Shown here: one piece after another, positions 9,998 to 18,536 of the stretch
How positions within the stretch are numbered: the stretch's first letter is position 1
Layout of the letters: every line of letters begins with the position of its first letter
DNA from: Oscillospiraceae bacterium
GTDB lineage: Bacteria > Bacillota > Clostridia > Oscillospirales > Acutalibacteraceae
Length of the DNA: 64,000 bases
Assembly: GCA_015066345.1 (NCBI GenBank)
Contig: SVOQ01000010.1
Coordinates: 22,431-86,430, forward strand
Reading direction: 5' to 3'
Notes under the pieces: generated by a model
What the model saw: the letters and a program-made list of their open reading frames with translations, nothing else
Told to the model about the DNA's origin: nothing
Database searches by the model: none
Translations under genes and position numbers: made by a program

Positions 9998-10978
9998 ATG
10001 GAACTTGTTAAACGTCCCGATGATATGAAAAGAATAAACAATATTGAACTCGCCAATGCTTTTATTGATGAACAGGTTGCGGCAGTTCGTTCGCAGGTAG
10101 GGGATAAAAAAGTTCTTCTCGCTCTTTCAGGCGGTGTTGATTCCTCTGTTGTTGCGGCTTTGCTTATTAAAGCAATCGGCAAACAGCTTGTTTGTGTTCA
10201 CGTAAACCATGGTCTTATGAGAAAAGGCGAAAGCGAACAGGTTATTGAAGTTTTCGGTAAACAGCTTGATGCAAATCTTATTTACATTGATGCAACTGAC
10301 CGTTTTCTTGACAAACTTGTTGATGTTTCTGACCCTGAAAAGAAACGTAAAATTATCGGTAATGAATTTATTGAAGTTTTCAACGAAGAAGCACTTAAGC
10401 TTGAAGGCATTTCTTTCCTTGCTCAGGGTACAATTTACCCCGATATTCTTGAGAGTGACGGAGTTAAGGCTCACCACAACGTTGGCGGTCTTCCCGAGGA
10501 TATGAAGCTTGAGCTTTGCGAACCCGTTGCACTTCTTTATAAAGATGAAGTACGTGTTGTTGGTTCTGCGCTCGGTCTTCCCGATGAAATGGTTTATCGT
10601 CAACCTTTCCCGGGTCCCGGTCTTGGTGTTCGTTGCCTTGGTGCAATTACACGCGACAGACTCCACGCTTTAAGAGAAGCTGATGCAATTCTTCGTGAAG
10701 AATTTGATAATGCCGGTCTTGCAGGTAAAGTATGGCAGTATTTTATTGCCGTTCCCGATGTTAAGAGCGTTGGTGTAAGAGATTCTAAACGTTATGAGGG
10801 TTGGCCCGCAATCATTCGTGCAGTTAACACAACTGACGCAATGAGTGCTACAATTGAAGAAATTCCTTACGCACTCCTTCATAAGATTACTGATAGAATT
10901 ACCCACGAGGTAGACGGCATCAACCGTGTGCTCTACGACCTCACACCGAAGCCCATCGGCACAATTGAGTGGGAATAA
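9998..10978 (+). CDS. guaA: GMP synthase, ATP-pyrophosphatase/dimerisation part only
   Basis: 326 residues from ATG 9998, with GGAGG 9 bp ahead (a TTG at 9989 is too close to it). GMP synthase converts XMP to GMP. The PP-loop LALSGGVDSSVVA is at about residue 45; the dimerisation-domain segments RQPFPGPGLGVRCLG and the conserved end GTIEWE are intact. The glutamine amidotransferase domain that forms the first 190 or so residues of ordinary bacterial GuaA is absent, as in archaeal GuaAb. Ammonia or a separate GATase subunit must supply nitrogen. The last codons and stop are part of a 16-bp repeat that marks the left end of a genomic island. Confidence 0.93.
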   Translation: MELVKRPDDMKRINNIELANAFIDEQVAAVRSQVGDKKVLLALSGGVDSSVVAALLIKAIGKQLVCVHVNHGLMRKGESEQVIEVFGKQLDANLIYIDATDRFLDKLVDVSDPEKKRKIIGNEFIEVFNEEALKLEGISFLAQGTIYPDILESDGVKAHHNVGGLPEDMKLELCEPVALLYKDEVRVVGSALGLPDEMVYRQPFPGPGLGVRCLGAITRDRLHALREADAILREEFDNAGLAGKVWQYFIAVPDVKSVGVRDSKRYEGWPAIIRAVNTTDAMSATIEEIPYALLHKITDRITHEVDGINRVLYDLTPKPIGTIEWE

Positions 10979-10981
10979 TAC
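10966..10981 (+). repeat. attL-like direct repeat at the guaA 3' end
   Basis: TGAGTGGGAATAATAC, identical to bases 15604-15619. It covers the last codons and stop of guaA. The 3' end of guaA is a known insertion hotspot for genomic islands that use tyrosine recombinases. The two copies bracket 4.6 kb of accessory genes. Confidence 0.85.
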
Positions 10982-11066
10982 CAAGTTTTTTAAAAATCCT
11001 TGATTTATAAGGGATTTAAGAGTTTTTTCACGCTCTGTGACTAAGCTTGTGACTAAATATATATTT

Positions 11067-11103
11067 GAACTGACTGATTATAATATCGGTCAGTTCTTTT
11101 TTT
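11067..11103 (+). terminator. Strong terminator inside the island's left end
   Basis: GAACTGACTGAT (11067-11078), loop TATAAT, ATCGGTCAGTTC (11085-11096), a 12-bp stem with one wobble, then seven Ts. It would stop guaA read-through into the island, since insertion separates guaA from its own terminator. Confidence 0.85.
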
Positions 11104-11180
11104 ATCAAAAATTTTTTGTTATATAATAAGATTAATTGTCATCATATTGTGAATGAATGTAGTTTTAACTCGATTTTTTG

Positions 11181-11209
11181 TTGCAATATTAGTTTTCGAT
11201 TGTTATAAT
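11181..11209 (+). promoter_or_regulatory. Promoter of the island operon
   Basis: -35 TTGCAA (11181-11186), 17-bp spacer, -10 TATAAT (11204-11209), 34 bp before the HTH gene. A consensus -10 suggests good expression; all island genes could be driven from here. Confidence 0.7.
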
Positions 11210-11243
11210 AGTAAGTGGATTTTTATATTTAAGAGGTGTACTT

Positions 11244-11456
11244 ATGGCTGTTAGTTATAAAAAACTCTGGAAACTCTTGATTGACCACGATATGAAGAAA
11301 AAAGACCTTGCAAAGGTCGCTGATATCAGCAACTACACAATCACAAAAATGAGCAAGGGTGAAAACGTCACCGTTGAAACCCTCGGCAAAATCTGCGCTG
11401 CATTAAACTGTGGCGTGGATGATATTATGGAATTTGTTCCGGAAGAAAATCAGTGA
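11244..11456 (+). CDS. Small XRE/Cro-type HTH regulator
   Basis: 70 residues consisting of one helix-turn-helix domain (KKKDLAKVADISNYTITKMSKGE) followed by a helix typical of the YozG/Cro family (LGKICAALNCGVDDIMEF). An AGAGGTG site precedes the ATG. It lies 48 bp before the methylase-nuclease gene, a position typical of controller proteins of restriction-modification systems, which delay nuclease expression after entry into a new host. Control of the downstream genes is inferred from position; no palindromic operator was clearly seen near the promoter. Confidence 0.85.
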   Translation: MAVSYKKLWKLLIDHDMKKKDLAKVADISNYTITKMSKGENVTVETLGKICAALNCGVDDIMEFVPEENQ

Positions 11457-11504
11457 ATTCAATAATTAGATTTATAGACAGTTTATTCAAACGGAGGCTT
11501 TATT

Positions 11505-13541
11505 ATGAGCACATTAGAAATTAAAAGAGACAACGGAAAAATCTTTTGCCCTTTAACAGATTCTTGGCATATTGAAACACCTGAGGAAAAAGTGCGCCAA
11601 GAATACATAAAAATTCTTGTAGAGGACTATGGATATTCTCTTGACCAAATGGCACAAGAAATCAAAGTCAATAATTCTCAGCGCGGTCAAGGCAAGGCAC
11701 GTGCAGATATTGTTATTTGGAAATCAAAACAGGATAAAATCGAAAGCAAAGCCGCTTTTATTGTTGTTGAATGCAAAGCGGAAAATGTTCGTATTCGTGA
11801 AGAGGATTATTATCAAGGATACAACTATGCTTCTTGGGCTGGTGCAAGCTTCTTTGTAACTACTAACGAAAAAGAAACAAAATACTTTAACGTTGACAAG
11901 GATTATCTTCCTAAAGAATTAGTAGAAGTTGTCGCTATTCCTACTGCAGAAGAAGCACTGAATGACAAAAAAGTAAAAGATATTCTCTCTAAAACGAAAA
12001 CATTTACAAGAGATGATTTTACAAAGATTCTTCGCACCTGCCATAATATTATTCGTAATAATGATAAGCTTTCTCCTGAAGCTGCATTTGATGAAATTAG
12101 CAAAATTCTCTTTATGAAGATCAAATACGAGCGTGAGCAGCGTGGTGCAAAAGTTTTTACGAAGAATGAATTTGTAGAAAAAGAAAAGTGGTTTGAAAAA
12201 GAAATTCGTCCCAGTCTGAAAGGAACTCCTAAAGATCTTCCTTATATGCAATTCTTGTTTTACAACACCAAGGAAGAATTTAAGGATGACCAACTTTTTG
12301 AAGAAAACGAAATCATTAAAATCAGACAAAACAGCTTTGAGCAAATCCTCGAAAAGCTCGAAACCTATAATCTTTCCGATACACAAGATGACGTTAAAGG
12401 TATCGCCTTTGAACAGTTCTTGGGTACTACATTCCGTGGTGAATTAGGACAATACTTTACCCCTCGCACTATCGTTGATTTTATGACGCATATTCTTGAT
12501 CCCAATGAAACGGAAACTGTATGTGATCCTACTTGTGGTAGTGGTGGTTTCTTGATTAAAGCATTCGAATATATGCGTGAAAAAATTGAGGAAGACGTAA
12601 AGAAAGCTAAAGCCGAATTGCGTTCTGTTATTGAAGGTGAGAACTACGATTCACTATCCGAAAAGGAACAGGTAGTTATCAACGAACGCATTGAAGCTAT
12701 GCAATCCACACTTAACAAAGAACTCGATACCCAAGTAGAGGGTAGCCGTATGTATAATCTGTCCCGTAATTGTATTTATGGAACTGATGCTAACCCTCGT
12801 ATGGCAAGAACCTCAAAAATGAATATGATTATGCACGGTGATGGACACGGAGGCGTTCATCATCACGACGGCTTGCTGAATGTTAACGGTATTTTTGAAG
12901 AGCGTTTTGATGTAATTTTAACGAACCCTCCTTTCGGCGCAAGAATTGATAAATCTCAAAAAATTACCGAAGCAGATAAATTCACCGATGAAGCTTTGAT
13001 CGCAAAATATAAAGAAAAATACGGTGAAGCTTATGAAAATGCGCTCAAGCAGGTAAACGATAACATCGGCAAATCCTTGCTTTCTCTCTACGATGTCGGT
13101 TCTATGTCCGGTCTTACTGAAGTGCTCTTTATGGAACGTTGCCTCAGACTGCTTAAAAAAGGTGGCCGTATGGGTATGGTTTTGCCTGAAGGTGTTCTTA
13201 ATACATCCAACCTTCAGAAAATTCGTGAATACTTTGAAGGTAAAGCCAAAATCATTTTGATTTGTTCGATCCCTCAAGATGTATTTATCGCTGCCGGTGC
13301 CACAGTAAAACCCAGCCTCGTTTTCTTCAAGCGTTTTACTGAAGAGGAAGAACTTCAGTACTTGGGTGCAAAAACCAAGGCCGAAGGCGAAGTTCGTGAA
13401 AAATATATCGAAACCATTAACACAGTAAAAGAAGAAATTGCAAAAGAAAAAATCAAGGCAATACGAATGGTAGGACTAAAAACGCTTAATGATATTGAAA
13501 AAAATATTATTGAAGAAGCAAAACCGCTTATCAAACAATAA
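11505..13541 (+). CDS. HsdR-N nuclease-like domain fused to type I N6-adenine DNA methylase
   Basis: 678 residues with a CGGAGG site ahead of ATG. Residues about 25-150 look like the type I restriction HsdR N-terminal (HSDR_N) fold, with a PD-(D/E)XK-like pattern: Asp68 in RADIVIW and Glu89-Cys-Lys91 in VVECKAEN. Residues about 175-300 match the HsdM N-terminal helical domain, and the methylase core follows with the SAM-binding motif DPTCGSGGF (341-349) and the catalytic NPPFG (474-478). The protein could therefore cut and methylate with one chain. No HsdS specificity gene and no HsdR helicase lie next to it. The C-terminus ends at AKPLIKQ, where many relatives continue, so it may be slightly truncated. 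A standalone, BREX-unrelated system is the simplest reading. Confidence 0.9.
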   Translation: MSTLEIKRDNGKIFCPLTDSWHIETPEEKVRQEYIKILVEDYGYSLDQMAQEIKVNNSQRGQGKARADIVIWKSKQDKIESKAAFIVVECKAENVRIREEDYYQGYNYASWAGASFFVTTNEKETKYFNVDKDYLPKELVEVVAIPTAEEALNDKKVKDILSKTKTFTRDDFTKILRTCHNIIRNNDKLSPEAAFDEISKILFMKIKYEREQRGAKVFTKNEFVEKEKWFEKEIRPSLKGTPKDLPYMQFLFYNTKEEFKDDQLFEENEIIKIRQNSFEQILEKLETYNLSDTQDDVKGIAFEQFLGTTFRGELGQYFTPRTIVDFMTHILDPNETETVCDPTCGSGGFLIKAFEYMREKIEEDVKKAKAELRSVIEGENYDSLSEKEQVVINERIEAMQSTLNKELDTQVEGSRMYNLSRNCIYGTDANPRMARTSKMNMIMHGDGHGGVHHHDGLLNVNGIFEERFDVILTNPPFGARIDKSQKITEADKFTDEALIAKYKEKYGEAYENALKQVNDNIGKSLLSLYDVGSMSGLTEVLFMERCLRLLKKGGRMGMVLPEGVLNTSNLQKIREYFEGKAKIILICSIPQDVFIAAGATVKPSLVFFKRFTEEEELQYLGAKTKAEGEVREKYIETINTVKEEIAKEKIKAIRMVGLKTLNDIEKNIIEEAKPLIKQ

Positions 13542-13546
13542 TCTAT

Positions 13547-13807
13547 GTGTTTGAGGTACAGTCTAAAGGTTCAATTGATAGCCTTATTCTTAATCTAAAG
13601 AAAGCACAAAGCAACGCTGCTGTTCAAGCTGTTGTCGCCGTTGCCGATGAAGAACAACTTGCAAAGATTATTCGTGAAAGTACAGGTGTTATTGATGCTA
13701 ATTCTCTTCGCACATGGGATTCCGAAGATGTTTTAGCTGTCTATGACTCTCTCGTAAGGGCTCATGAATCAATCAACAAACTTGCTCTTGTCCCTGAAAG
13801 CTTTTAA
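13547..13807 (+). pseudogene. 86-codon fragment resembling the end of a restriction-type nuclease
   Basis: Open frame with a GTG at 13547, 5 bp after the methylase stop and without a Shine-Dalgarno site. It opens abruptly with FEVQSKGSIDSLILNLKKAQ, which looks like the second strand and following helix of a PD-(D/E)XK-type restriction enzyme (an E-x-Q/K plus G pattern), and continues with a beta-alpha-beta stretch AVVAVADEEQLAKI. The abrupt start, missing upstream strand with the first acidic residue, and lack of a ribosome-binding site suggest the 3' remnant of a larger gene lost by deletion. It could instead be a small accessory protein translated by coupling; I cannot decide from sequence. 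Confidence 0.45.
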
Positions 13808-13825
13808 TCAAATGGTTTGTATAGC

Positions 13826-15367
13826 ATGAAGAATCAATCTAAGTTGTTAAATAAATACTGTGATCCGTTTTCCAACAAAGCAAAAGAATTAGCTTTGAAA
13901 TTTGACTCAGCAACTATTGATAAAGATACAAAAAAGCTCAAAAGCCTATTAGGTGAAGCTGGAGGCATTTTGAAACAAGAGAATGATGCTTCTAAGGCTA
14001 TGATTTATTACTCTTTAGGAACTGCATATGATGATTTGTCAAGGTTAACCGGAAGTCAAACGGAAGAGGCTTTTCAAAAAGTATTGTATTGTTTTAGAAA
14101 AAGTATCAATCTGATTGAACAAGATGAATACACAAAAGATATATATCGCCCATATGTACTTGGTTTAAAAGAGATTCTTTATACCAACTACGCAAATGCG
14201 TTAGACCATTGTGGCAGAAAAATTGCGGCAATTGAACAGTATAAAAAGGCTTTATCTATCCATATGGACTTCGGAATGGCCCTTGGGAACTTAGGGCGAG
14301 TTTATCAACATTATGGTATGCTTGAGTACGATGATAATCATAGGGACTTGTTTCATTATTTTGCATATCATTACTTAAACAATGCAATTAATTGCAATGA
14401 TCCTAATACTTATGATGCTGCTAAAAAGTGTTTTAAGGATACCATTGATGTGTATGCACCTGAGTATGTTGAAAATGTACTTACCTCGGATTTATCTTTT
14501 AACCAATATGTATATGATATCCCCGAAGAACTCGCCTATAGAGAATGGTGTTTGCATAATGGTTTGTTTTTAAATACATTGAATGATTTACCCGTTGCTG
14601 AACTTTGTTTTGCGAGAGATGTCATACAGCTTCCAAGTATGATTGTTGGCATACATGATAAACCGATATTTCATGGAATGTTTAGTCAGCTTAAGCAAGA
14701 ATATGTTTATGCACGATATCTTTATTACGATACTCTTAACTCGTGTGATGAACCTCACTTTGCTGATAAGGAAACATATATAAAATCGCATACCGATTAT
14801 GCTCAATATTCAATTCGGTTGGAAAAATTAAAAACATCATTCAAAACACTTTACGGTATGTTTGATAAAATTGCCTTTTTCCTTGAACATTATTTTGATT
14901 TGGGAATAAAGGAGCGAGATATTAATTTTCGTTCGATTTGGCAAGATTCTGCCGGATTCGGAAAGAAGAAATATCAATACAAGCAAAAACTTGATCCGGA
15001 TAAAAATTTTGCTTTGTCGTCGTTATATTGGATTAGTAAAGATTTCTTCGAGAAGTTTGAAGATTCTCCAAATCCCGAGTTAAAAAGAATCAAAGATATT
15101 CGTGATGCATTAGAGCACAAGTATGTAAAAATTAATGATTATATTTTTAACGATAGAATTGAAGATTATGGCGATGGATTAGCTTTATACGTATCTGAAA
15201 AAGAAATGTATGATGCAACATTTATGTTGCTGAAAATTCTTCGTGAAGCAATAATAAATTTATCTTTATGCGTGAATATAGCTGAAGAACCAAAAAGAGA
15301 GGCATCAAAAGATAAACTAATAATGCCTATTAGTCTTATGGATTATGAAGATGAGTGGAAAATATAG
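13826..15367 (+). CDS. TPR-HEPN protein, LA2681-like, predicted RNase
   Basis: 513 residues from ATG 13826 (an in-frame TTG at 13817 is the alternative; neither has a good Shine-Dalgarno). Residues about 110-160 form TPR-like helical repeats (TNYANALDHCGRKIAAIEQY, then a second unit). The C-terminal quarter is an all-helical region with RDALEH, an Rx4H motif at Arg426 and His431, the signature of catalytically active HEPN ribonucleases. The overall layout resembles the LA2681-like HEPN family. HEPN proteins act in abortive-infection, toxin-antitoxin and RM-linked defence by cleaving RNA. Its place as last gene of the island operon suggests a second, RNA-targeting line of defence behind the DNA nuclease-methylase. 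Function is inferred. Confidence 0.75.
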   Translation: MKNQSKLLNKYCDPFSNKAKELALKFDSATIDKDTKKLKSLLGEAGGILKQENDASKAMIYYSLGTAYDDLSRLTGSQTEEAFQKVLYCFRKSINLIEQDEYTKDIYRPYVLGLKEILYTNYANALDHCGRKIAAIEQYKKALSIHMDFGMALGNLGRVYQHYGMLEYDDNHRDLFHYFAYHYLNNAINCNDPNTYDAAKKCFKDTIDVYAPEYVENVLTSDLSFNQYVYDIPEELAYREWCLHNGLFLNTLNDLPVAELCFARDVIQLPSMIVGIHDKPIFHGMFSQLKQEYVYARYLYYDTLNSCDEPHFADKETYIKSHTDYAQYSIRLEKLKTSFKTLYGMFDKIAFFLEHYFDLGIKERDINFRSIWQDSAGFGKKKYQYKQKLDPDKNFALSSLYWISKDFFEKFEDSPNPELKRIKDIRDALEHKYVKINDYIFNDRIEDYGDGLALYVSEKEMYDATFMLLKILREAIINLSLCVNIAEEPKREASKDKLIMPISLMDYEDEWKI

Positions 15368-15603
15368 TCAACAAAACTTTATCGCTTTAAAGTATTGACA
15401 TATACTTTTTATGTGCTACAAATCATTTGCAATTGTAAATGAGGAGTGTTTCAGGTGGGTGTGAATCCGCCGGGGTTAGTGTTTTTGTTCCGTGATACTG
15501 TGATTGATACGGTTTTTGGGCAAAAAACTTAAAAACATCAGTTTTGACCCCTCAGAAACCCTTATTTTACATGCCTTTTCACAAGTTAAATATCAAAACT
15601 AAG
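15368..15603. other. Right inner flank of the island, no intact gene
   Basis: No gene longer than about 25 codons. A TTGACA at about 15403 and a GGTGG/CCGCC pairing near 15454-15470 are visible but do not form a convincing promoter or known riboswitch. The stretch ends with a CCCTTATTTTAC...TTTTCAC segment similar in style to the left inner flank. It may be the relic of the region that once held the integrase gene. Confidence 0.4.
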
Positions 15604-15619
15604 TGAGTGGGAATAATAC
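15604..15619 (+). repeat. attR-like direct repeat
   Basis: TGAGTGGGAATAATAC, an exact 16-bp copy of the guaA end at 10966-10981. The bases on both sides differ from the left copy, so the identity ends sharply, as expected for a recombination core. Confidence 0.85.
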
Positions 15620-15808: not shown

Positions 15809-15841
15809 TTTTCACTAATATTTTATATATTTTTCACTAAT
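15809..15841 (+). promoter_or_regulatory. Tandem TTTTCACTAAT boxes upstream of the GH3 promoter
   Basis: The 11-mer TTTTCACTAAT occurs at 15809-15819 and 15831-15841, 22 bp apart, so two helical turns on the same DNA face. The second ends 13 bp before the -35 box. It could be a binding site for an activator of the glycosidase gene. Confidence 0.45.
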
Positions 15842-15854
15842 TTTTTATAAATTA

Positions 15855-15920: not shown

Positions 15921-18536
15921 ATGAAAAAATCCAAAAAGTTAATTGCAGTGATACTCACAATTACATTAATTTTTACTTGTTTGGTAGTTCCTGCAGTTGC
16001 AGTAAGCGGAAATATTCCCGATGATGTCGTTGCGATGTCAAGTCAGGTTGCTGTTGAAATTGAGCAAGAGGGTATAGTTCTGCTTAAAAATGTTGATGAT
16101 ACCTTACCGCTGGCCGGTAAGAAAGTAAATGTATTTGGTGCAGCTTCCGTTGTTCCTCTTTTAGGTGGCGCCGGTTCAGGTGCTATAACCACTCACGACC
16201 CCGTATATTTTTATGAGGCTCTTGATGAAGCCGGTATATCATATAACAGAGAACTTATGGAGCTATATGATGAATATTGCAGTTCAGATGAGATTCTTAA
16301 AACCGGAAGTACAGTTTTCAACAACCTTCTTCAGCTTCTTCTTGCAAAAAGTTCTCTTAACGAAATGAATCCCGATAATCTTACCGATGACGTAATGGCA
16401 CGTGCTAAGGCTTTTTCAGATACTGCCATAATTGTTATAGGCAGAACAAGTGCCGAAAACACTGACCTTACGCCCGAGATACTTAGTTTAAGCGAAACTG
16501 AAAGATCAATGGTGGATAAGGTTGCTTCAACATTCTCGGATGTTATAGTGCTTTTCAATATAGGTAACGTGATGGAGATGGGCTTCCTTGATGAGTATGA
16601 GAGCATTAAGGCTGCTGCTATTTTCTGGATTCCCGGTGAATTTGGTATGAGAGCGGTTGGGCAGATGCTCAATGGTGAAGTTAATCCATCGGGCAGACTT
16701 GCGGACACTATTGCTTATAGCATTTATGACCATCCTTCAACACAGAATTTCGGAACTTATAAATATGAGGGTGGAGAATACTATGTTGAGTATCAGGAAG
16801 GTATCTACGTAGGTTACCGTTATTTTGAAACATTTGCTAAGTATAAAGTTCAGTATCCATTCGGATACGGTCTTTCATATACAAGCTTTACGAAAGAAAT
16901 TGTATCAAAAAGTACCGATAATGGTAAAATACGTGTTGATGTAAAGGTCACTAACACCGGTGACGTCAGTGGTAAGGATGCTGTACAGATTTATTACAGT
17001 GCCCCTTACACAGGTGAAATTGAGAAAAGTGCAATAGCCTTGGGTGGTTATGAAAAATCAAAGCTCCTTGCCCCAAATGAAAGCGAAATTGTAACTGTTG
17101 AATTTGACATAAATGGTATGGCTTCTTACGACAGGGTTAATAATGAGGCGTGGGTTCTTGAAAAAGGCGATTACCGAATAATTCTTGGCGAGAATGTTCG
17201 TGAGCATATCGATACATTTACAGTTACTTTAGATGAAGAGATTGTTGTTAAAACTGATAATAATTCGGGAAATGAAATTAAAAATCTTTTTGACGATGTA
17301 TATTCAGATTTTACAATTCTTTCAAGAACGGATGCAGTAGCAACATATCCGGCCGCAAGACAGCTTGTTAAGACTGATGCTATTAAAAAGGCAGATAAGT
17401 ATCCTGCTCCCACCAAAGAAGGCACTGCTCCTAAAATGGGAGTAACTTATAGCACAGGGGTAATCACTCTTCAAGATGTTTACGAAAATGAAGAGCTTAT
17501 GGATGCTTTCTTAGACCAGCTCACCCTTGATGAAATGATTAACCTTGTTGCTCGTGGAGGCTATCAAACGCACGGTATTGAAAGACTTGGTGTTCCTCAG
17601 ACATGGGATAATGATGGACCCTCCAGTATAAAAGGTGCCCATGGTATTGCGTATACTGATAGTGGTACTGCATATCCTTGTGCTACCGCAATTGCTTGTA
17701 CGTGGAATAAAGAGCTTGCAAACAGAATGGGTGACAGTGTAGGTATTGAAGCAAGAAGCATTGGTACTGATATCTGGTATGCACCCGGTGTAAATATCCA
17801 CAGAAATCCCATGGGTGGCAGAAACTTTGAGTATTTCTCAGAAGACCCGGTACTTTCAGGTACAATGGGTGCCGAAATTATTAATGGTGCATGGGGTCAG
17901 GGGCTTGTTACAACTATTAAACATTTTGTTATGAATGATCAGGAATCCCAACGTGCCGGTGTGTTTACTTGGGCAGATGAACAGACAATGCGTGAAATCT
18001 ATCTTAAAGCATTTGAAATTCCTGTGAAAAAATCTGCTTGTCACGGTGTTATGTCCGCTTATAACAGAATTGGTACTGATTGGTGCGGTGCAAGTTCAGA
18101 ACTTCTGAAAGATTTGCTTCGCAAAGAATGGGGATATGAAGGTTATGTTGTTTCCGACTATTCTAATAACTTTGTCGGTAATGGTTATATGAGCCCTGTA
18201 CTGGCAATTTATAATGGTAATGATACAATGCTAACAGGCGTTTGGTTTCTTAATATGCCATCACACGTTGCTGCCATCGAAATTCAGTATTATGCAGACC
18301 CAATAGGTTTTGGTACGGCAATGCGCGAAGCTTGTAGGAACATTATGAACGCAAAAATGAAAACTAAGGCTTTCCTTGAACCCGGTTATTTTGTTGATAA
18401 TGAGGACCTTGTTATTAGTGAGGAAGATTGGGATTTCACTGAACCGTATATTGTTTCCTATCTTAACCTTGAATTTACAAACTTTGTTAATCAAATCGTT
18501 ATGATATTCAGAAAGTTTATTGATTGGCACTTCTGA
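15921..18536 (+). CDS. Secreted glycoside hydrolase family 3 with permuted domain order
   Basis: 871 residues. An N-terminal signal peptide (basic MKKSKK then a hydrophobic stretch to about residue 28) indicates export. The order is GH3 C-terminal alpha/beta domain first (about 45-290), then a fibronectin-III-like domain (about 320-420), then the GH3 TIM barrel (about 500-840). This is the reverse of the usual order and is known from several ruminococcal beta-glucosidases. The barrel carries the KHFVMNDQE substrate loop and the nucleophile Asp746 in GYVVSDY. It probably releases hexose or N-acetylhexosamine from oligosaccharides outside the cell; substrate cannot be fixed by sequence. The following kinase and nucleotidyltransferase genes make an amino-sugar link possible. 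Confidence 0.88.
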   Translation: MKKSKKLIAVILTITLIFTCLVVPAVAVSGNIPDDVVAMSSQVAVEIEQEGIVLLKNVDDTLPLAGKKVNVFGAASVVPLLGGAGSGAITTHDPVYFYEALDEAGISYNRELMELYDEYCSSDEILKTGSTVFNNLLQLLLAKSSLNEMNPDNLTDDVMARAKAFSDTAIIVIGRTSAENTDLTPEILSLSETERSMVDKVASTFSDVIVLFNIGNVMEMGFLDEYESIKAAAIFWIPGEFGMRAVGQMLNGEVNPSGRLADTIAYSIYDHPSTQNFGTYKYEGGEYYVEYQEGIYVGYRYFETFAKYKVQYPFGYGLSYTSFTKEIVSKSTDNGKIRVDVKVTNTGDVSGKDAVQIYYSAPYTGEIEKSAIALGGYEKSKLLAPNESEIVTVEFDINGMASYDRVNNEAWVLEKGDYRIILGENVREHIDTFTVTLDEEIVVKTDNNSGNEIKNLFDDVYSDFTILSRTDAVATYPAARQLVKTDAIKKADKYPAPTKEGTAPKMGVTYSTGVITLQDVYENEELMDAFLDQLTLDEMINLVARGGYQTHGIERLGVPQTWDNDGPSSIKGAHGIAYTDSGTAYPCATAIACTWNKELANRMGDSVGIEARSIGTDIWYAPGVNIHRNPMGGRNFEYFSEDPVLSGTMGAEIINGAWGQGLVTTIKHFVMNDQESQRAGVFTWADEQTMREIYLKAFEIPVKKSACHGVMSAYNRIGTDWCGASSELLKDLLRKEWGYEGYVVSDYSNNFVGNGYMSPVLAIYNGNDTMLTGVWFLNMPSHVAAIEIQYYADPIGFGTAMREACRNIMNAKMKTKAFLEPGYFVDNEDLVISEEDWDFTEPYIVSYLNLEFTNFVNQIVMIFRKFIDWHF

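What the first reader, a model, noticed from the sequence alone, without database searches (positions are those of the whole stretch)
11244..15367. Candidate new defence module: HTH + nuclease-methylase fusion + TPR-HEPN RNase
One polypeptide carries an HsdR-N-like PD-(D/E)XK pattern (Asp68, Glu89-Cys-Lys91) and an intact N6-adenine methylase (DPTCGSGGF, NPPFG) without HsdS or an HsdR helicase. It is followed by a TPR-HEPN protein with an Rx4H motif, in the same operon behind one regulator. DNA recognition plus RNA degradation in one small operon is not an arrangement I can name from known systems.
Basis: partly seen in the sequence, partly recalled or inferred. Interest (0 to 1): 0.8.

Follow-up and report, generated by a model that had tools for sequence, protein, structure and literature searches.

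The report
Damaged restriction operon with intact TPR-HEPN gene
A 4.6-kb piece of DNA inserted at the end of the guaA gene carries parts of a restriction-modification (anti-virus) operon next to a complete gene that likely makes an RNA-cutting defence protein, so the apparent three-gene 'new system' is likely a deletion product rather than a working module.

Summary
(1) The 678-aa nuclease-methylase lacks a C-terminal tail that 119 of the 120 listed homologues carry (112 of 120 are 750-765 aa). In 13 of 16 related loci a separate HsdS gene follows directly, in one more it is fused; a HEPN gene is present in 0 of 16. (2) The unmentioned 86-aa ORF at 13547-13807 is the last quarter of a ~360-aa, probably nuclease, protein; the junction near 13540 is best explained by one deletion that removed the RM tail, HsdS and the front of that gene (inferred). 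(3) HsdS and HsdR were not found in the genome. (4) 10967-15619 is an insertion at the 3' end of guaA: exact 15-bp repeats at both ends, and in two sister genomes guaA runs straight into the right-hand flank. The TPR-HEPN gene (LA2681 family) looks complete, with an invariant R-x4-H; it likely acts as an infection-triggered RNase (inferred). Of 80 HEPN loci, one (L007, 68% identical) has an RM-HsdS-HNH-TIR-like-HEPN run, so HEPN cargo in an R-M operon exists but looks rare. An ordinary remnant with a moderately interesting cargo gene.

The parts
10967..10981 (+). Left copy of exact 15-bp direct repeat GAGTGGGAATAATAC, spanning the guaA stop codon (attL-like)
   Evidence: only 2 matches in 64 kb with up to 2 mismatches; mean 0.14 in shuffles, 1 of 100 shuffles had 2; guaA ORF ends 10978
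11181..11209 (+). Promoter-like site TTGCAA-17-TATAAT with TG before the second hexamer, upstream of the HTH gene (consensus match only)
   Evidence: 23 sites found, 19.9 expected by chance; not evidence by itself
11244..11456 (+). HTH_26 Cro/C1-type regulator, 70 aa
   Evidence: 9.8e-21
11505..13541 (+). Truncated RM subunit: HSDR_N_2 nuclease domain (26-146) and N6-adenine MTase; ends EEAKPLIKQ*, lacking about 80 C-terminal residues of homologues
13533..13545 (+). Likely deletion junction: similarity to RM homologues ends and similarity to the ~360-aa protein gene begins at about 13540
   Evidence: blastn similarity begins at 13540 to L087, 13541 to L135, L136, L137, L139; RM side
13547..13807 (+). 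Remaining C-terminal 86 codons of a ~360-aa protein with a PD-(D/E)XK-like pattern; about 275 N-terminal residues, including the putative catalytic Asp, are absent
13826..15367 (+). Full-length TPR-HEPN protein, LA2681 family, 513 aa, R426-x4-H431
15605..15619 (+). Right copy of the 15-bp direct repeat (attR-like); from here the sequence matches the DNA that directly follows guaA in two sister genomes

Best explanation
This is a 4.6-kb insertion at the 3' end of guaA that carries part of a restriction-modification operon (a regulator, an RM subunit without its C-terminal tail, no specificity gene, and only the last 86 codons of a second gene that likely encoded a nuclease), likely left by one internal deletion, followed by a full-length TPR-HEPN gene that likely works on its own as an infection-triggered RNase. 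Shown by the sequence and calls: the flanking repeat and the uninterrupted site in two sister genomes; the missing tail; no HsdS or HsdR found in the genome; the partial ORF; the conserved HEPN motif. Inferred: that one deletion joined the RM gene to the neighbouring gene; that the RM protein can no longer assemble with an S subunit and so neither cuts nor methylates a defined site; that the HEPN protein, held inactive by its TPR part or by dimer control, is released during phage infection and cleaves RNA to stop phage production, as other HEPN abortive-infection RNases do. In the undamaged ancestor the order would have been HTH - RM - HsdS - ~360-aa nuclease - HEPN, a BcgI/Type I-like DNA restriction enzyme backed by an RNase.
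For: Tail: motif found in 119 of the 120 listed homologues, the exception being P0031, 625 aa; 112 of the 120 are 750-765 aa. A separate HsdS directly downstream (gap -64 to +354 bp) in 13 of 16 RM loci, each confirmed by Pfam Methylase_S above cut-off (L093, ten, L103 and L129); of the other three, L104 has Methylase_S in the same ORF, L094's contig ends 77 bp after the gene, and in L130 none was found. Own genome (98.2% complete): PF01420 HsdS 0 matches; PF04313 only the window's own domain, below cut-off. The 86-aa ORF aligns to the C-terminus of 359-377-aa proteins in L135, L136, L137; DNA similarity runs 13540-13807 (82% to L087). That ~360-aa gene directly follows a specificity gene in L146, after a Type IIG-like RM gene, and overlaps the end of a Methylase_S ORF in L087. 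Insertion. Rarity: RM gene in 1 of 200 family genomes, its own (E<=1e-100); HEPN in 2 of 295 order genomes (E<=1e-30), its own and a 30%-identical copy with one stop inside. HEPN complete.
Against: No read data: the junction could be an assembly error; the exact junction string was not found in viral contigs and metagenome contigs could not be checked. No intact relative with exactly RM (this subfamily) - HsdS - ~360-aa gene - HEPN was found, so the ancestral order is inferred from pieces; in L135 and L136 and on the Monoglobus plasmid the ~360-aa gene has no R-M gene beside it. No integrase in the insert. The empty site matched in only 2 of 19 sister loci. GC content in the insert (0.32-0.40 in 1-kb windows) is lower than upstream (0.40-0.43) but similar to parts of the downstream DNA (0.33-0.41), so it says little. 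The RM active-site residues are all in place, which a long-dead gene need not show; the damage may be recent or the short protein may still function. No homologue of the HTH (phmmer E<=1e-3) was seen in 18 related loci, although the Flammeovirga operon has an unrelated-looking HTH gene in the same place. HEPN RNase activity and any defence role are untested. No enrichment control was run for the HEPN neighbourhoods.
Confidence: 0.82

Rival explanations
1. A genuine compact defence module: the RM protein senses or nicks DNA without HsdS and signals to the HEPN RNase, under one regulator.
For: Catalytic residues of RM and HEPN in place; genes co-directional with short gaps and no terminator-like site on the + strand between 11244 and 15367.
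Against: RM lacks a tail present in 119 of 120 listed homologues; related loci have HsdS (13 of 16 separate, 1 fused) and no HEPN (0 of 16); the intervening ORF is a gene fragment; no target-recognition (Methylase_S) domain in the 678 aa.
Confidence: 0.06
2. The junction is an assembly or binning artefact, and the organism carries a complete RM-HsdS-nuclease-HEPN operon.
For: 48-contig assembly; other chimeric-looking database proteins of the same families exist (P0257 HsdS::HEPN, P0002 RM::AAA, P0121 internally deleted).
Against: Both sides of the junction lie in one contig stretch with a coherent insertion structure; HsdS was not found anywhere else in the assembly; no long direct repeat was reported at the junction.
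Confidence: 0.1
3. PrrC-like two-tier system in its intact form: the HEPN RNase is kept in check by the R-M complex and released when the complex is attacked; in this window the lock has been lost, so the HEPN must be self-regulated or re-regulated.
For: PrrC precedent (PMC3710099 and PMC3874165 passages); L007 has RM-HsdS-HNH-TIR-like-HEPN co-directional, with a 4-bp overlap before HEPN; P0257 joins an HsdS piece to the HEPN.
Against: Only 1 of 80 HEPN loci shows it; neighbours of other copies include BREX, Type IIG, HsdR, RloB and GmrSD genes, which suggests a free-standing cargo gene; the window's HEPN persists without a complete R-M complex.
Confidence: 0.2

Closest known systems
BcgI-like (Type IIB) RM subunit plus separate S subunit
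   Same: N-terminal PD-(D/E)XK-type domain and N6-adenine MTase in one chain, no helicase; related loci have a separate HsdS directly downstream (PMC3874165 and PMC11997821 passages).
   Different: In the window the S gene and the RM C-terminal tail are missing. For the RM + S group (BsaXI excepted) a C-terminal helical tail is described as forming a bundle with S (PMC11997821 passage). Double-sided cleavage not tested; the sequence match to RM.BsaXI is best over the MTase part (419-619) and the N-terminal domain alone had no meaningful PDB match.
MADS methyltransferase MAD2
   Same: Matches over residues 10-618 (NCBIfam NF047738, 302.8 bits).
   Different: Far below the curated cut-off of 720 bits.
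PADLOC MTase_I family PDLC03018
   Same: Match over 4-677, 1151.5 bits: an already catalogued Type I-like methyltransferase family.
   Different: Window copy ends at model position 673 of 749.
LA2681 HEPN family (Anantharaman et al. 2013, PMC3710099)
   Same: TPR fused to HEPN with conserved R-x4-H; PF18733 201 bits against cut-off 27.
   Different: The table row seen lists TPR fusion and TPR operon for LA2681, not R-M linkage.
PrrC / EcoprrI
   Same: HEPN RNase coded with a Type I-like R-M system (passages).
   Different: PrrC has an ABC ATPase domain and lies in a complete hsdMSR operon; here TPR, and hsdS/hsdR not found.
guaA 3'-end integrated islands (e.g. Tn5801-like, PMC4844618 passages)
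   Same: Insertion at the guaA 3' end with a short direct repeat at both ends.
   Different: 15-bp rather than 11-bp repeat; no integrase or transfer gene seen in the insert.

Membership tests
Type IIB (BcgI-like) R-M | One chain with N-terminal PD-(D/E)XK nuclease and N6-adenine MTase, no helicase | tested here: met
   HSDR_N_2 26-146 and N6_Mtase in 678 aa, no helicase domain; D68/E89/K91 and NPPF conserved in the alignment. Domain level only; catalysis untested
Type IIB (BcgI-like) R-M | Separate S (specificity) subunit | tested here: not met
   None in window or genome; present in 13 of 16 relatives' loci
Type IIB (BcgI-like) R-M | Cleavage on both sides of a bipartite site | not testable with these tools
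   Needs purified enzyme
Type I R-M | HsdR motor subunit | tested here: not met
   PF04313 search of own genome: only the window's own domain, below cut-off (control rings in 9 of 14 genomes)
Type I R-M | HsdS subunit | tested here: not met
   0 matches in own genome; control rings in 9 of 14 genomes
MADS (MAD2) | NCBIfam equivalog cut-off 720 bits | tested here: not met
   302.8 bits
LA2681-type HEPN RNase | PF18733 above gathering score | tested here: met
   201.1 bits against 27
LA2681-type HEPN RNase | Conserved R-x4-6-H motif | tested here: met
   R426 and H431 invariant in 22 of 22 aligned
LA2681-type HEPN RNase | TPR region fused N-terminally | tested here: met
   TPR_17 25.5 bits against 24.4, a narrow pass; AlphaFold helical model, mean pLDDT 83.5; Foldseek top hits are TPR proteins, but none at E<=0.001
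LA2681-type HEPN RNase | RNase activity | not testable with these tools
   No experiment; inferred from family
PrrC-like anticodon nuclease | ABC ATPase domain fused to HEPN, inside an hsdMSR operon | tested here: not met
   No ATPase domain; no hsdS/hsdR
guaA genomic island | Direct repeats at guaA 3' end and uninterrupted site in relatives | tested here: met
   (L116 90.3% and L110 87.5% over 144 aligned columns from 15605; 2 of 19 sister loci)
guaA genomic island | Own integrase | tested here: not met
   No integrase-like gene among the ORFs of at least 60 aa between 10982 and 15604 (read by eye; the four named ORFs scanned)

The most novel reading that the evidence does not exclude
The LA2681 TPR-HEPN proteins are a plug-in RNase arm for BcgI/Type I-like R-M operons: an intact form (L007: RM - HsdS - HNH - TIR-like - HEPN) couples DNA restriction to RNA destruction, and the window shows the RNase arm surviving as an independent defence gene after the DNA arm broke.
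Probability: 0.3. Interest if true: 0.55.

Novelty: new member of a known kind. Interest (0 to 1): 0.28.

Why it matters
It removes a probable false 'new system' from the list and shows how such false modules can arise: a deletion inside inserted defence DNA places genes side by side that normally are not. It also shows the LA2681 TPR-HEPN family (for which I found one paper in the library) on a guaA insertion, on viral contigs and beside R-M, BREX and Type IIG genes, which makes it a reasonable candidate for a phage-defence test.

Tried and rejected
Rejected: compact HsdS-free module (see rivals). Rejected: the 86-aa ORF as an S-like or antitoxin protein; it is the end of a larger protein. 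Rejected: MADS membership. Led nowhere: viral-contig search with the 86-aa ORF, no relatives; class-wide search with the RM protein, 1 of 391 genomes, its own (E<=1e-80); PDB search with the 170-aa N-terminal domain, no meaningful match; AlphaFold of the 150-aa nuclease-like C-terminus P0133, mean pLDDT 54.7, too low for a fold search, although the predicted helix-strand order is what I would expect of PD-(D/E)XK; Foldseek of the HEPN model gave TPR proteins at the top and nothing at E<=0.001; Rfam, none; HTH homologues in 18 related loci, none; phage records: HEPN in 1 of 50,697 records, RM relatives all under 60% identity (59 records); junction string in viral contigs, none; MADS papers, listing only; papers on genes embedded in Type I operons, listing only.

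HEPN neighbour scan: 306 neighbouring ORFs from 84 loci, 258 after removing near-duplicates, 92 from mostly Firmicutes loci, of which 85 were scanned (I left out the seven rows of L024, L029 and L077). Only counts per family were returned and I ran no control set, so no enrichment is claimed. The HsdS profile used was built from six of the same loci (L007, L091, L092, L093, L101, L129); I therefore checked all 13 downstream genes with Pfam, and all pass. That profile missed the Type II specificity gene of L146, which PADLOC found.
Full report
What is in the window. Searches confirm an HTH_26 regulator (11244-11456), a 678-aa protein with HSDR_N_2 and N6_Mtase domains (11505-13541) and a TPR-HEPN protein (13826-15367; PF18733, 1.6e-59). 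The quoted motifs are real; D68, E89, C90, K91, N474, P476 and F477 are the same in all 130 aligned sequences (window, the 120 listed homologues, 9 locus proteins), and R426/H431 in 22 of 22 aligned HEPN proteins (the window's protein and 21 of the 120 listed).

The RM protein is truncated. One search scored 7998 homologues and listed 120; 112 of these are 750-765 aa. A script found the C-terminal tail motif F[DHN]Y[EADV][IV]P in 119 of the 120; the exception is P0031, 625 aa. The window's protein ends EEAKPLIKQ* where the listed homologues go on EEAKPLIKEYFDYEIP... for about 80 residues. PADLOC's family PDLC03018 matches it at 1151.5 bits but only to position 673 of 749. In the RM + S group of Type IIB enzymes (BsaXI excepted) a C-terminal helical tail is described as forming a bundle with the S subunit (PMC11997821, passages seen), so loss of the tail would likely also impair S binding (inference).

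HsdS is normally there. I examined 16 loci with related RM genes: 14 viral contigs and two plasmids. A separate HsdS follows directly in 13 of 16, all 13 passing Pfam's Methylase_S cut-off (for L093, for ten, for L103 and L129). In L104 Methylase_S is in the same ORF, L094's contig ends 77 bp after the gene, and in L130 I found none. HEPN: 0 of 16. Some relatives carry further genes after HsdS: an ATP-binding protein in Flammeovirga, and an AAA ATPase (Pfam) plus a short protein in L093 and L101 that I read as HNH-like although neither has a Pfam match. The own genome (2.33 Mb, 48 contigs, 98.2% complete) has no PF01420 match and no PF04313 match above cut-off.

The 86-aa ORF is a gene end. 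One search found 104 relatives of limited length; their N-terminal extensions and full-length loci (360, 377 and 359 aa in L135, L136, L137; L138 is a shorter, degraded-looking 155-aa copy) show a ~360-aa protein whose C-terminal part reads ...VDAVWEAKIGNMGKAIYVFEVQSKG..., a pattern I read as PD-(D/E)XK-like (no Pfam family above cut-off for the pieces scanned, no PADLOC match for the full L146 copy; AlphaFold model too weak to test). The window keeps only the part from about IYVFEVQSKG onwards; DNA similarity to L087 starts at 13540. In L146 the full gene directly follows a Type IIG-like RM gene and a Type II specificity gene and precedes HamA; in L087 a Methylase_S ORF precedes it; in L147, L148 and the Monoglobus plasmid it stands without an R-M gene beside it. 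A single deletion joining the RM gene to this gene explains the window with one event. This is inference; an assembly error is the main alternative.

It sits in an insertion at guaA. The 15-bp repeat GAGTGGGAATAATAC occurs exactly at 10967-10981 (over the guaA stop) and 15605-15619, and nowhere else in 64 kb with up to 2 mismatches (mean 0.14 by chance). In L116 (G487) and L110 (G483) guaA runs straight into DNA that matches the window from 15605 on (144 columns at 90.3% and 87.5%), i.e. the empty site. These are 2 of the 19 sister loci fetched (the twentieth, L109, is the window itself); 17 gave no match to the right flank, and three of those hold less than 120 bp after guaA. guaA 3' ends are a known integration site (PMC4844618, passages seen; further papers seen only in the listing). 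No integrase was seen in the insert. The RM gene was found in 1 of 200 family genomes (its own) and the HEPN in 2 of 295 order genomes (its own and a 30%-identical copy with a stop inside).

The HEPN gene. 513 aa, AlphaFold mean pLDDT 83.5, helical repeats followed by the HEPN part. In 80 genome loci (the best 80 of 93) only L007 and L039 have an ORF matching the RM profile; the L039 one is an ordinary HsdM with HsdM_N, about 5.6 kb away from its HEPN. Only L007 has the run RM - HsdS - HNH - TIR-like - HEPN (the TIR match is weak: PADLOC 4.3e-8, Pfam below cut-off). Neighbours of other copies include BrxL, PglZ, a Type IIG enzyme, a Type I restriction enzyme, a C5 methylase, RloB and GmrSD_N (one member of 85 each; no control). 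P0257 joins an HsdS piece to the HEPN, possibly another deletion product. The LA2681 family is listed in PMC3710099 with TPR fusion and TPR operon only (passage); the search for 'LA2681' with 'HEPN' returned that single paper in the library searched.

How it likely works. The RM part is probably dead for sequence-specific cutting and methylation. The HEPN likely remains a latent RNase triggered by infection; the TPR part is the likely sensor or lock. Both statements are inference from family knowledge. The ancestor would have been a BcgI/Type I-like enzyme with RNase back-up, comparable in logic to EcoprrI-PrrC (PMC3874165 and PMC3710099 passages).

Verdict. Real genes, wrong module: a damaged member of known kinds, with one little-studied HEPN family as the point of interest.

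Noticed in passing
L141 4512-6047 (own genome, contig C48): A second HsdM-like gene (511 aa) with no HsdS found next to it or in the genome: another orphan methylase.
   Followed up: partly
L007 3727-11539: Co-directional run: type IV-like restriction protein, RM, HsdS, HNH, weak TIR-like effector, HEPN, with HEPN overlapping the preceding ORF by 4 bp.
   Followed up: partly
L146 2-7016: Type IIG-like RM, specificity gene, the ~360-aa nuclease-like gene, HamA, then a 750-aa ORF where HamB would be expected (HamB name recalled, not tested).
   Followed up: partly
L110-L128: The DNA after guaA in 17 of 19 sister loci does not match the window's right flank, so the site may be a hotspot; three of the 17 hold under 120 bp after guaA.
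   Followed up: partly
proteins P0002, P0004, P0121, P0157, P0257: Chimeric-looking database proteins (RM::AAA, RM::HEPN_Swt1, internally deleted nuclease, HsdS::HEPN): deletions between neighbouring defence genes may be common here, or these are assembly chimeras.
   Followed up: no
L105 7124-8650; L150 9144-10655: LA2681 HEPN genes on a viral contig next to packaging-type genes (my reading of the ORFs) and on an unannotated faecal phage fragment.
   Followed up: no
window 15809-15852: Two tandem imperfect 22-bp copies (91%) upstream of the ORF at 15921, which I read as a GH3-type enzyme.
   Followed up: no
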